A stretch of DNA of 64,000 bases from Staphylococcus saccharolyticus (GTDB lineage Bacteria; Bacillota; Bacilli; Staphylococcales; Staphylococcaceae). The stretch is taken from contig NZ_UHDZ01000001.1 in the NCBI RefSeq assembly GCF_900458815.1, forward strand, positions 2,046,001 to 2,110,000. The letters are read 5' to 3'. Of the stretch, positions 1 to 64,000 are shown piece by piece. A program made the translations under genes and the position numbers. The first letter of the stretch is position 1, and every line of letters begins with the position of its first letter. Below the pieces are notes generated by a model. The model saw only the letters and a list, made by a program, of their open reading frames with translations. It made no database searches and was not told the DNA's origin.

Positions 1-1421
1 TTAAAATAATTGCTGGTAAACTAAATAACCACGGCTCATGAATTTGTTTTCTTTTAAACTTTTCTATATTATATTCTCCCCAAAATGCTTCTTTAATCAT
101 GTAAAGCGCATAAGTAAAGGTAAATATACTTGCAATCACACCTATAGTAACGATAACAATCGTTAACGTTAAACTAAATTGGTCAAGTTCAACTGCTTTG
201 ACAAGTGAATCTAAAAACATTTCTTTACTAAGAAAACCATTTAAAAACGGAACACCGGCCATTGATAATGCACTTAATAGCATAACAATATACATTTTTG
301 GAAAGACTTTATGCATACCACTTAATAGACGTATGTCTCGTGTACTTGATTCGTAGTCAATAATACCCACTCCCATAAATAAGGCACATTTAAAAATGGC
401 ATGATTCATTAAATGAAATAATCCAGCAAATAATACTAAAGCATAAAACTCTGACGCACCATCAGACGTATGTTGAGCATATCCTCCACCAACACCAACC
501 ATAGACATAATCATGCCAAGTTGACTAATAGTAGAATAAGCTAATATCCCTTTTAAATCATATTGTCTAAGTGCAGTTAATGAACCAAAAAGCATTGTAG
601 CAAGACCAACAAAAGTGACGATATAAATATAAATGTCACTTAATCCTAATAACGGCGTGAATCTAAAGAGTAAGAAGATTCCTGCTTTGACCATCGTAGC
701 TGAGTGAAGATATGCGCTCACAGGCGTTGGTGCTACCATCGCTTTTGGCAACCAGATATGAAATGGAAATTGTGCAGATTTAGTAAATGCACCAAGTAGT
801 AGCATGATGATCATAGGAATGAATAGCGGGTGCTGTTCAATAGTATGACGTTGCTCAAGAATGTCAGAAATCGTGTTAGTCCCAGTAATGATGTATAGCA
901 TAATAAAACCAGTTAATAATGCTAAACCACCAAACACAGTTATCATAAATGATTGAATAGCGCCTAATTGACTTTCTCCATTGTTATACCAATATGAAAT
1001 AAGTAAAAAAGATGTACATTAGGATTGTATTATTTGAAATGACAATTCCAATCATACTAAACATAAATAGCAGTAAATAAACGAAGAATCTAGGTAAATT
1101 ATCTGTGCTAGCTAATAGATATTGTGTGGCATAGAAAAAGACACCCACACCTATAAGCGAAATAATCAATGAGAGCATTAAGCTAAGTCCGTCTAATTTC
1201 AAATCTAAATTAATATCAATGGATGACATCCACGGTAAATGTACTGTTGTAAATTTATGGTGAATAACATTGGATATTTGAAAAATAAAATAAATGGATG
1301 AAAGAATGGGTGCAAGTAAAGCAAGATAGCCAGCAGCCTTATTTAATTTTCGATGACTCATTGATAGTAATGTTAAGCACATGATGACTATCATAACACC
1401 TAGAAGATACACCAAGCTCAT
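1..1421 (-). pseudogene. mnhA2: MnhA2-type Na+/H+ antiporter subunit A, frameshifted, 5' part of gene
   Basis: Large membrane subunit of an Mrp-type cation/proton antiporter (NADH dehydrogenase ND5-like family). The start at 1421 has a strong AGGAGG-type site. The first ~135 residues match the family (membrane helices, then NLPRF and an [11 protein letters not shown] stretch). At about 1014-1018 the frame breaks, and a different frame resumes directly at [10 protein letters not shown] and runs open to the window edge, including the conserved HSATMVKAG segment. About eight family residues (WELTSVSS-like) are missing at the join, which fits a deletion of about 26 nt between short CTTT-type direct repeats. 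The rest of the gene and the operon lie outside the window. The neighbouring recombinase-like gene and sarA identify this as the second (mnh2) cluster; that part is synteny from memory. Confidence 0.85.
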
Positions 1422-1451
1422 TAAACCCCTCCTTTTATAATAAATCATCAC

Positions 1452-2009
1452 TTATAAATCTAATGCAATGATAGTATGATGTTTTAATTGATTCGTAAGT
1501 CCAATAAACTTCTTTGTTTCTTGAATCGTTTGATGTCCAAGGTATTTTTGAATGATTGAAATAGATATACCCGATTGAAAAGCATGATAAGCAAATGTTT
1601 TTCTTAAAGTAGTAAGTCCAACATGCTGAAGGTCCAAACGTTCTGCAGCATGATGAACTATTCTATAAGCTTGTTGTCTGGAAAGACATTGATGTGTCCT
1701 CGTTGACCGAAAGATAAGATCTTCATCCTCTAATCGAAGCTCTTCTATATAGCCTTTCATCTCTTGTTGTAAATCATCAGGTATTTTAACTTTTATTGTT
1801 GATTCATATTCTACAATCCACGACGTTCTTATATTCCCCTTTTTCTGACTTTTTAATTGTTTTACAGTCATATTTAACAAATCTGTCAGTCTAATTCCAG
1901 TATGTATAGCAAATTTAAAAAATAAATAGTCTCTAACAGAGCGTTCTTTTAACACTTGGTACAGTCGATAAATATCTATTTTACTTTTAATGGGTTCTAC
2001 GTGATTCAT
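1452..2009 (-). CDS. Tyrosine-recombinase-like protein lacking the catalytic tyrosine
   Basis: 185 residues, about the length of a phage-integrase catalytic domain without the N-terminal DNA-binding domain. GIRLTD near residue 39 carries the first catalytic Arg. The usual HxLRHTFA box reads TTLRKTFA, so the His is lost and the Arg kept. LGH is present, but the nucleophile position reads ETKKFIG, Phe instead of Tyr. It should therefore not cut DNA and may act, if at all, as a DNA-binding protein. The start has an AGGAGG site. It ends 30 bp before the mnhA2 start and could be co-transcribed with it. A homologue at the same site in S. aureus is recalled as an integrase-like hypothetical. Confidence 0.75.
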   Translation of the reverse strand: MNHVEPIKSKIDIYRLYQVLKERSVRDYLFFKFAIHTGIRLTDLLNMTVKQLKSQKKGNIRTSWIVEYESTIKVKIPDDLQQEMKGYIEELRLEDEDLIFRSTRTHQCLSRQQAYRIVHHAAERLDLQHVGLTTLRKTFAYHAFQSGISISIIQKYLGHQTIQETKKFIGLTNQLKHHTIIALDL

Positions 2010-2147
2010 ACGTCCTCCTAATTTACGTTTCTTATTTAATGATAAATGATGTTTAAGTTACATCAAAAAATTTGCTTTAAAAATTTAATGATTAGTATCC
2101 CTTTTTTTATTCTCAAACGATATATAAAGTGAAAGGAGGTTATTACT

Positions 2148-2354
2148 ATGAATGAAGTAAATCAAGTGACTGTCATCTTTACTCAAGTTGAGCACAACTC
2201 TGAAGGTAAAGCAGTTGAACACAAGCGTCGTTTTACAAATTTAAATCCAGTCCTGACTCATGATCAAATTAGAACTTTTCGTTCAATTATCGAACGTATC
2301 ACTGGTGAAAACTATGACAAAGTAGAAGTTGTTAAAACAGAATCATTAATTTAA
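2148..2354 (+). CDS. DUF1659 family small protein
   Basis: 68-residue soluble protein starting eight bases after a strong AAAGGAGG site. It contains the pattern RRFTNLNPVLTHDQIRTF typical of DUF1659, a small Firmicutes family of unknown function. It is followed 14 bp later by a DUF2922-like reading frame, the usual partner of DUF1659 genes. The two probably formed one operon, transcribed divergently from the recombinase-like gene. No enzymatic motif is visible. Confidence 0.75.
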   Translation: MNEVNQVTVIFTQVEHNSEGKAVEHKRRFTNLNPVLTHDQIRTFRSIIERITGENYDKVEVVKTESLI

Positions 2355-2368
2355 GGAGGGCCAGTAAG

Positions 2369-62100: not shown

Positions 62101-62317
62101 TCGTTGACCTCGTTTCTGATTGATTGTAAGACAAATATTTTAATACCACTTACGTATGCATCTTTTTATTATTTTAGACAAAAGTACTTAGATATAAAGC
62201 GTAATTTAATTAATATATTGGGTACACCCTGCCTTTGATTGATATCAATATATCTTTTATGTTTCAATATTTCTGTAATGTATGGTGATATTTTCTTCTC
62301 TCATTTGCTGTACATCA
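62101..62317. other. Intergenic between Cof-type HAD and tadA
   Basis: About 220 bp, AT-rich, with the HAD gene promoter side and tadA 3' end. No gene or clear hairpin. Confidence 0.35.
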
Positions 62318-62824
62318 TCATTCTAACAAATTTGCATCGTTTTGTATCTTCACTTGTTTCAAAGCTTTTTTCTGTTCACGAATTTGTTTAAAAAAACTTT
62401 GAAGTAGCTGGCTACATTCCTTTTCCAAAACCCCCGATTCAACACTAGATCGATGATTAAACTGAGGTTGCTCAAGTAAATTCATCAAACTTCCAGAACA
62501 TCCACCTTTAGGATCAGTAGCACCGTAGACGACTCTTGGAATACGACTCATTACAATAGCTCCCGCACACATCACGCATGGTTCTAATGTGACATATAAA
62601 GTACAATCCTCTAATCTCCAGCTTCCAACGATTTCTGATGCCCGTTCAATTACTATATGTTCTGCATGAGCAGTCGGTTGTTGTAATGTTTCTCTTAAAT
62701 TGTGAGCGCGAGCAATCACTTGGTGATCTTTAACGATAATAGCTCCAATAGGCACTTCGCCAATAGTCATTGCTTTGTGCGCTTCTTTAATTGCTAAACG
62801 CATATAATCCTTATCATTTCTCAT
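62318..62824 (-). CDS. tadA: tRNA-specific adenosine deaminase TadA
   Basis: 168 residues, intact. It converts A34 to inosine in tRNA-Arg(ACG). Zinc-deaminase motifs HAE (His53, catalytic Glu55) and PCVMCAG (Cys83, Cys86), plus the tRNA-type end [15 protein letters not shown] 62824 follows GAGGTATTCC; a longer open frame upstream runs through the divergent dgk promoter and lacks a ribosome site. Divergent from dgk across about 65 bp. Confidence 0.94.
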
Positions 62825-62888
62825 ATGTCGGAATACCTCACTTATGGTACAATACTCATTGTCTATCTTAACATTTGGAGAAGTGATT

Positions 62889-63497
62889 ATGAATAAACCT
62901 TTTATTGCTATTGAAGGACCTATAGGTGTTGGAAAATCTTCACTTGCCAATCGTTTAAGCCACTCACTAGGCTTTTATGAAGAAAAAGAAATTGTAGATG
63001 AGAATCCTTTTTTATCTGATTTTTACGATGATATTGAAAAGTGGAGTTTCCAGACAGAAATGTTCTTTTTATGTAACAGATATAAACAAATTAGAGATAT
63101 TGAAGAATTACGCCAAGGTGTAGTTAGTGATTATCATATTCATAAAAATAAAATATTTGCTAAAAATACCTTAAATGCCTCAGAATTTGATAAATTTAGT
63201 CGCATTTTTGACATTTTAACTGAAGACTTAGAAATGCCTAACATAATTATCTTTTTAGATGCCGATTTAGAGGTATTAAAATCAAGAATTGCTAAACGTA
63301 ATCGTAGTTTTGAATCGCACATCGAAGATGATTACTTATTAACTTTAAAAAAAGATTATCAAGCGTACTATGAATCGTTAAAAAATGAAGGTGCAAATAT
63401 CGTACTTATTGATACGACAAACGTAGATTTTGTTGAAAATGAAGACGATTATCAAGATATTTTAAATATAGTAAAACCAATGATTGGAGCTCGTTAA
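62889..63497 (+). CDS. dgk: Deoxyguanosine kinase-type deoxynucleoside kinase
   Basis: 202 residues, intact. P-loop [13 protein letters not shown] (residues 8-18), catalytic Glu in [11 protein letters not shown], and the lid [10 protein letters not shown]. It phosphorylates deoxypurine nucleosides for salvage. ATG 62889 follows GGAGAAGTG; an upstream in-frame start at 62844 lies in the tadA coding start. Three bases before the second kinase gene; the pair is typical of Firmicutes (dGK plus dAK/dCK). Confidence 0.9.
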
Positions 63498-63499
63498 AG

Positions 63500-64000
63500 A
63501 TGAATAATTATAGCATCCCCCAAAATGCAATCATTACAATCGCTGGTACAGTGGGCATAGGTAAATCGACGCTAACACAAGCACTGGCTGATAAATTAAA
63601 TTTTAAAACTTCATTTGAAAACGTGGATCATAACCCTTATTTAGATAAATTTTATCACGATTTTGAACGTTGGAGTTTCCATCTTCAAATCTATTTTCTT
63701 GCCAAACGCTTTAAAGAACAAAAGCGCATGTTTGAATATGGTGGCGGTTTTGTACAAGATCGCTCAATTTATGAAGATGTTGATATTTTCGCGAAAATGC
63801 ATGAAGAACAAGGTACCATGAGTAAAGAAGATTATCATACATACGCAGAATTATTCGATGCCATGGTAATGACACCATATTTCCCCAAACCAGATGTGCT
63901 TATTTATCTAGAGTGTGATTATGATGAGGTGATTGATCGTATCAAACAACGCGGTCGTGATATGGAGATTAATACTAATCCTGGATATTGGAAAAAGCTA
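63500..64000 (+). CDS. dck: Deoxyadenosine/deoxycytidine kinase, cut by the window end
   Basis: 167 residues visible. IITIAGTVGIGKSTLTQALA P-loop, FENVDHNPYLDKFYHDFERWSFHLQIYFL (hydrophobic nucleoside pocket), catalytic region VQDRSIYEDVDIFAK with the DRS motif, and KQRGRDME at the lid. It salvages deoxyadenosine or deoxycytidine. It overlaps closely with dgk (two-base gap) and is probably translated from AAAG. The C-terminus is beyond the window. Confidence 0.9.
   Translation, partial: MNNYSIPQNAIITIAGTVGIGKSTLTQALADKLNFKTSFENVDHNPYLDKFYHDFERWSFHLQIYFLAKRFKEQKRMFEYGGGFVQDRSIYEDVDIFAKMHEEQGTMSKEDYHTYAELFDAMVMTPYFPKPDVLIYLECDYDEVIDRIKQRGRDMEINTNPGYWKKL

What the first reader, a model, noticed from the sequence alone, without database searches (positions are those of the whole stretch)
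1..64000. Widespread, mixed-mechanism gene decay sparing core functions
About 27 of roughly 67 genes are broken. Lesions include in-frame nonsense (2384, 13117, 47716, 49688, 50444, 56960, 57284, 58795), single-base indels, deletions between direct repeats, a lost start codon, and IS truncation. Core genes are all intact. Nonsense and repeat-mediated deletions argue against pure homopolymer sequencing error. The pattern fits a recently host-restricted or niche-shifted staphylococcus such as S. saccharolyticus, for which strong genome decay has been reported; the species is my inference.
Basis: partly seen in the sequence, partly recalled or inferred. Interest (0 to 1): 0.7.

Follow-up and report, generated by a model that had tools for sequence, protein, structure and literature searches.

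The report
Genome decay in Staphylococcus saccharolyticus
This stretch of a human skin bacterium's chromosome has about two dozen broken genes scattered among intact essential ones, which is the already published, widespread genome decay of Staphylococcus saccharolyticus and not a sequencing error.

Summary
With S. caprae as reference, 14 of 55 testable genes are broken in the window; between four relatives only 9 of 607 comparisons are. Seven of the eight named stops lie in genes that are whole in relatives; 13117 rests on a weak match. Three larger deletions show no flanking direct repeats, so that sub-claim is not supported.

The genome is S. saccharolyticus: 6,000 bases of its 19,923-bp second contig are 100% identical to that species' plasmid NZ_CP068030.1. 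Decay of this species is in print: at least 301 pseudogenes (2019), 469 and 493 in two closed genomes (2021).

Added here: conserved blocks of the same genome have few lesions, so error does not explain them. Broken genes are not more diverged than expected, so inactivation looks young. One truncation point recurs in a 97%-identical protein. mutS, mutL, mutY, mutM and recA have full-length frames, so an obvious mutator is unlikely; sbcD is split. Best mechanism: relaxed selection after a niche shift, with ordinary mutations.

The parts
2..1451 (-). Mnh2-type Na+/H+ antiporter subunit A (798-800 aa in relatives), broken by a deletion with frame change; gene runs off the window
2369..2590 (+). 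74-aa conserved small protein, one in-frame stop near 2384
   Evidence: 72-74 aa in S. caprae, S. devriesei, S. shinii
2747..3711 (+). Membrane protein (308-342 aa in relatives; membrane by a sub-threshold NCBIfam hit only), frameshifted
4090..5012 (+). HlyD/RND-adaptor-like protein (314-321 aa), broken by a deletion that shifts the frame
6007..6800 (-). Alpha/beta hydrolase (264-270 aa), frameshift and stop
10585..11540 (-). FecCD/FhuB-type iron transporter permease (317-337 aa), two frame changes
12862..13386 (-). Unidentified protein with stop at 13117 (weak: 38% identity, S. caprae only)
13517..14263 (-). MerR-like regulator (251-254 aa), six in-frame stops when read in one frame, two frame changes in frame-aware alignment
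19505..20009 (-). Conserved 168-aa protein (name YwgA recalled), frameshifted
   Evidence: no NCBIfam name
22200..22619 (-). Flavodoxin-like NAD(P)H/FMN reductase lacking about 56 N-terminal residues
22960..23908 (-). Aldo/keto reductase with N-terminal stop and frameshift; rest open but without usual start codon until 23433
24485..25827 (+). Hypothiocyanous acid reductase family oxidoreductase (441 aa), deletion of about 100 bp with frame change
29370..34640 (.). About 5.2 kb of relics (ATP-grasp fragment 31198-31521, ISL3 transposase fragment 32606-32968, S35 repeat) between the mevalonate genes and the lipoate ligase; only 0.4-0.6 kb lies here in G001, S. devriesei and S. shinii
43719..44553 (+). 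Pyridoxine/HMP kinase (276 aa in three relatives), frameshifted; the 219-aa C-terminal ORF heads a protein cluster standing for 92 contigs
44797..45006 (+). 83-aa small ORF of S. devriesei, two stops in the window (one relative only)
46966..47551 (-). Two small genes (87 aa; 128-136 aa), stops inside (weak: 34-45% identity)
47513..48618 (-). Acetyl-CoA acyltransferase (379 aa), stop at 47716 apparently shared with another lineage, plus a frame change near the C terminus
48621..49993 (-). Acyl-CoA synthetase (455 aa), stop at 49688 and frameshift
50089..50734 (-). HAD phosphatase (215 aa in S. caprae, the only relative with a match), stop at 50444 and frameshifts
50857..51416 (-). 6-phospho-3-hexuloisomerase HxlB (189 aa), frameshifted; neighbouring synthase gene 51406-52038 intact
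55315..57325 (+). Three-gene arsenic operon (ArsB by Pfam, the other two names by position and recall): first gene frameshifted, pump in three frames, third gene with stops at 56960 and 57284
57503..58881 (-). MFS transporter (433-457 aa), stop at 58795 and frameshifts
15214..16875 (-). Intact core gene: arginyl-tRNA synthetase
26331..29328 (-). Intact core genes: two GHMP kinases and diphosphomevalonate decarboxylase (mevalonate pathway)
34641..37392 (.). Intact core genes: lipoate ligase family, phosphate acetyltransferase, chlorite dismutase family (HemQ, name recalled)
37493..37625 (-). RsaA small RNA, full-length match

Best explanation
The window is an ordinary piece of a (likely clade-1) S. 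saccharolyticus chromosome in the middle of reductive evolution. After a shift to a nutrient-supplying, oxygen-poor skin niche, many accessory genes stopped being useful. Ordinary mutations (small insertions and deletions, stop codons, some deletions of tens to about 100 bp, decay of an old mobile island) drifted to fixation in them, while core genes stayed under purifying selection. The lesions are real and young relative to the split from S. caprae, and at least one seems older than the split between S. saccharolyticus lineages. A broken mismatch-repair system is not needed. Shown: the lesions, their concentration in less conserved genes, no excess divergence, open repair genes. Inferred: the shared stop (from equal protein ends), the niche shift, and relaxed selection as the cause.
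For: Broken 14/55 against 9/607 in controls. Broken genes are the less conserved ones: median S. caprae-S. devriesei identity 0.70 against 0.84, p = 0.008; 9 of 23 below the median and 3 of 26 at or above it. In a 300-kb sample of the same chromosome, 12 broken and 7 partial of 62 genes in the first 100 kb of the reference stretch, 4 broken of 166 in the rest (p = 5e-5; the cut at 100 kb was chosen after seeing the list). No excess divergence of broken genes (14 against 36 genes, one-sided p = 0.25). The thiolase ends at the same residue in a 97%-identical protein. mutS, mutL, mutY, mutM, recA open at full length. Species by plasmid match. Published genome-wide counts.
Against: With the same distant reference G001 the window is not significantly more decayed than the whole 300-kb sample (6/45 against 16/228, p = 0.22). 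Only one lesion was traced across lineages. A niche shift cannot be seen in sequence. The identity residual is a coarse clock, and frame-skipping alignment may flatter broken genes. The 300-kb sample was picked around mutS, not at random.
Confidence: 0.92

Rival explanations
1. The lesions are sequencing or assembly errors, mostly homopolymer indels.
For: 3 of 18 simple frameshifts lie within 12 bp of a run of 6 or more, against 3.4% of random sites (p = 0.02). Long-read coverage of the published closed strain 13T0028 was only 10-fold.
Against: 15 of 18 simple frameshifts have no such run near them, and the mean run length is not significantly raised (p = 0.07). Seven in-frame stops and deletions of 101, 34 and 26 bp. 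Only 4 of 166 genes broken over about 177 kb of coding sequence elsewhere. A protein from another assembly ends at the same residue as the truncated thiolase. Published Illumina coverage of 13T0028 is 205-fold.
Confidence: 0.02
2. A repair-defect mutator drove the decay.
For: Frame changes outnumber stops (21 frame events, one of them discounted, and 7 stops in the aligned broken genes). sbcD, part of a DNA-end and hairpin nuclease (function recalled), is split in this genome and whole in 4 of 4 relatives.
Against: mutS, mutL, mutY, mutM and recA are full-length. Only a weak homopolymer bias, although loss of mismatch repair should give a strong one (recalled). The three larger deletions show no flanking repeats. 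Other repair genes were not looked at.
Confidence: 0.05
3. Many of the genes are alternative or programmed frames (slippage) and still work.
For: Broken genes keep the identity to S. caprae that their conservation predicts.
Against: Two or more events in 8 of the 16 aligned broken genes, in-frame stops, deletions, and few slippery runs; relatives have single frames.
Confidence: 0.01

Closest known systems
Genome decay of S. saccharolyticus (PMC6423177, PMC8066136, PMC7953294)
   Same: Same species and the same kind of lesions; at least 301 manually counted pseudogenes, 469 in 13T0028 and 493 in DVP5-16-4677 (about 21% of coding sequences), mostly frameshifts and stops
   Different: The papers give genome-wide counts and pathways; in the sections and passages I saw they do not test the age of the lesions or mismatch repair. 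The 13T0028 chromosome there is 2,332,643 bp, here 2,346,514 bp
Reductive evolution after a lifestyle switch (Mycobacterium leprae, Yersinia pestis, Salmonella Typhi; as cited in PMC6423177)
   Same: Many pseudogenes after a change of habitat, by that paper's account
   Different: Here a skin commensal; compared only through the paper's text, not by sequence
Staphylococcus carnosus (55 truncated genes, as cited in PMC6423177)
   Same: Pseudogenes in a staphylococcus
   Different: Far fewer; not examined here

Membership tests
S. saccharolyticus genome decay (published) | Genome belongs to S. saccharolyticus | tested here: met
   6,000 bases of contig 2 (19,923 bp) are 100% identical to NZ_CP068030.1; genome 2,366,437 bp within the published 2,321-2,396 kb; the chromosome itself was not compared with a named record
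S. saccharolyticus genome decay (published) | About 20% of genes inactivated, mainly by frameshift | tested here: inconclusive
   Window 14/55 with the S. caprae reference; 300-kb sample 16 broken and 7 partial of 228 with G001; whole genome not counted here
S. saccharolyticus genome decay (published) | Lesions shared by isolates of the species | tested here: inconclusive
   One truncation point shared with a 97%-identical protein (its contig was not read). Two further truncated ORFs head clusters with 92 and 3 contigs, but clusters join at 90% identity and member lengths were not seen
Recent reductive evolution | Pseudogenes young relative to the species split | tested here: met
   No excess divergence, 14 against 36 genes
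Recent reductive evolution | Core functions spared | tested here: met
Mutator-driven decay | Broken mismatch or oxidative-damage repair | tested here: not met
   mutS, mutL, mutY, mutM full-length and without stops; activity not testable

The most novel reading that the evidence does not exclude
Most of the decay happened in one early burst before the two S. saccharolyticus subspecies separated, without a mismatch-repair mutator, and loss of the SbcCD nuclease through the split sbcD gene shaped the kind of lesions that accumulated.
Probability: 0.08. Interest if true: 0.4.

Novelty: already known. Interest (0 to 1): 0.2.

Why it matters
It confirms with controls that a human skin bacterium is in mid-course of genome reduction, with relatives close enough to judge each loss. 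It also removes sequencing error, and makes a simple mismatch-repair mutator unlikely, as explanations. The phenomenon itself has been in print since 2019.

Tried and rejected
Direct-repeat deletions: three deletions tested on the S. caprae sequence show no repeat beyond chance (3, 2 and 2 bp); 20-25% divergence weakens this test.

SbcCD loss as cause of the many S35 repeats: rejected. S35 (RF02894) has 47 matches in this genome but also 42 in S. caprae and 36 in S. devriesei, whose sbcD genes are whole.

Integrase-like ORF at 1452-2009 as a pseudogene: rejected; only S. caprae has a longer form. The S. caprae ProP gene is split in its assembly and whole in the window, a reminder that the references have lesions of their own.

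The first frame event of the pyridoxine kinase lies upstream of the start used by three relatives and is not counted as a lesion; it is still among the 18 and 21 events.

Length alone is not proof of a shared lesion: a 92%-identical 219-aa kinase piece (P0123) also exists in another contig.
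Full report
What was checked. The window is bases 2,046,001-2,110,000 of contig 1 of a genome of 2,366,437 bp in two contigs; contig 1 has 2,346,514 bp and contig 2 has 19,923 bp.

Species. The first 6,000 bases of contig 2 match NZ_CP068030.1, a 19,923-bp plasmid of S. saccharolyticus, at 100% over their whole length; it is the only plasmid record that matched. The announcement of strain 13T0028 (whole text read) gives a plasmid of 19,923 bp, and the 2021 paper places a 19-kb plasmid in clade 1. 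The published chromosome length (2,332,643 bp) differs from the one here, so I name the species and, likely, clade 1, not the strain.

Is the decay real? Predicted genes of four relatives were aligned to the window and, as a control, to each other. Rows called absent, cut by an edge, or below 45% identity were dropped. To the window: 6/45, 14/55, 12/51 and 6/45 broken. Between relatives: 9 of 607 pooled. ORF statistics agree: 52% of the window lies in ORFs of at least 200 aa, against 64-70% in the relatives' matching stretches. A frameshift-aware alignment to S. caprae proteins found 21 frame events and 7 stops in 16 broken genes; among genes classed intact it found events in two, the aldo/keto reductase, which I count as broken, and ProP, which is split in S. 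caprae. My hand count is 21 supported broken genes and 5 weaker ones of about 68 loci.

Is it error? Hardly. A 300-kb sample of the same chromosome, picked around mutS, was compared with G001: 16 broken and 7 partial of 228 matched genes. Of these genes 166, about 177 kb of coding sequence, hold only 4 broken ones (this block was set off after seeing the list). Random errors at the window's density would have broken many more. 3 of 18 simple frameshifts lie near a run of six or more identical bases; that is above background (p = 0.02), but 15 do not. The mean run length is not significantly raised (p = 0.07).

How old? If broken genes had been free of selection for long, their proteins would be more diverged than their conservation predicts. 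The mean residual is +0.012 against 0.000 (14 and 36 genes, p = 0.25). One outlier of +0.28 rests on an S. devriesei match of 22% identity, hardly an orthologue; without it the mean is about -0.009 by hand. The truncated thiolase (stop at 47716) ends at the same residue as a 302-aa protein, 97% identical, from another assembly; I did not read that contig, so that a stop follows there is inferred. The difference resembles that between the two published clades (average nucleotide identity 97.9%). For the MFS transporter the other 24 of 25 hits are at most 87% identical. The truncated kinase heads a cluster standing for 92 contigs; its members' lengths were not seen.

Mechanism. mutS (892-residue open frame), mutL (653), mutY (384), mutM (295) and recA (358) have no stop inside. 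So the simplest mutator models fail; that the proteins work is not shown. sbcD is split into two frames here and whole in four relatives; the neighbouring 1009-aa gene (sbcC by position, recalled) is open. Broken genes are the less conserved ones. Relaxed selection with ordinary mutation fits best. Gaps whose length is not a multiple of three split 29 deletions to 26 insertions in broken genes, so no strong deletion bias is seen, though alignment noise at this divergence is large (intact genes show 19 such gaps). Seven stops: one GC-to-AT transition, three other single changes, three multiple changes against the S. caprae codon; too few and too diverged to interpret.

What is lost. Broken genes include an antiporter subunit, an iron transporter permease, an acyl-CoA synthetase and thiolase pair, HxlB, a three-gene arsenic operon, a pyridoxine/HMP kinase, an MFS transporter and a hypothiocyanous acid reductase family enzyme. 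In the sample, a PALP-family enzyme is broken and an anthranilate synthase component is partial, in line with published amino-acid auxotrophies.

Literature. PMC6423177: abstract, part 1 of 3 of the results, the decay section and part 1 of 2 of the discussion read; a term search of its main text for mutS, mutL, mismatch repair and nonsense found none. PMC8066136: abstract, genome section and discussion read, term search. PMC7953294 read whole. PMC9742538 and PMC7465461: passages only. A search for saccharolyticus with pseudogenes, staphylococc and mismatch repair found no paper. Supplementary tables could not be read, so single lesions, sbcD included, may already be listed there.

Verdict. A correct and careful observation of a known phenomenon. 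New here, as far as those searches go, are only the controls and the repair-gene check.

Noticed in passing
window 3716-3924, 7945-8153, 14966-15185, 22745-22958, 30690-30900: At least five copies of the S35 RNA-family repeat (RF02894) in 64 kb; the genome has 47 matches, S. caprae 42, S. devriesei 36, ten other staphylococcal genomes 0-26 (two of the five reach Rfam's gathering score). It looks like a dispersed repeat that spread in this part of the genus, not a single sRNA gene.
   Followed up: partly
G000 contig 1: 1430405-1431123 (L148): sbcD, nuclease subunit of SbcCD, is split into two frames, while whole in four relatives.
   Followed up: partly
G000 contig 1 about 1464631-1465876: A GTPase with HflX-type domains (name recalled) is broken.
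   Followed up: no
L088:12219-13632: The ProP transporter is split in the S. caprae assembly but whole in the window (45357-46775).
   Followed up: no
window 34312-34600: A roughly 285-bp sequence with five matches at 75-81% identity in S. shinii and two shorter ones in S. caprae; no Rfam match. Unidentified.
   Followed up: no
window 18129-19145: Open zinc-type alcohol dehydrogenase gene with no match in the stretches fetched from four relatives; S. caprae has five other ORFs near this place.
   Followed up: no
window 41447-41803: DUF5327 protein is intact but unusually diverged (46-59% identity) beside strongly conserved neighbours.
   Followed up: no
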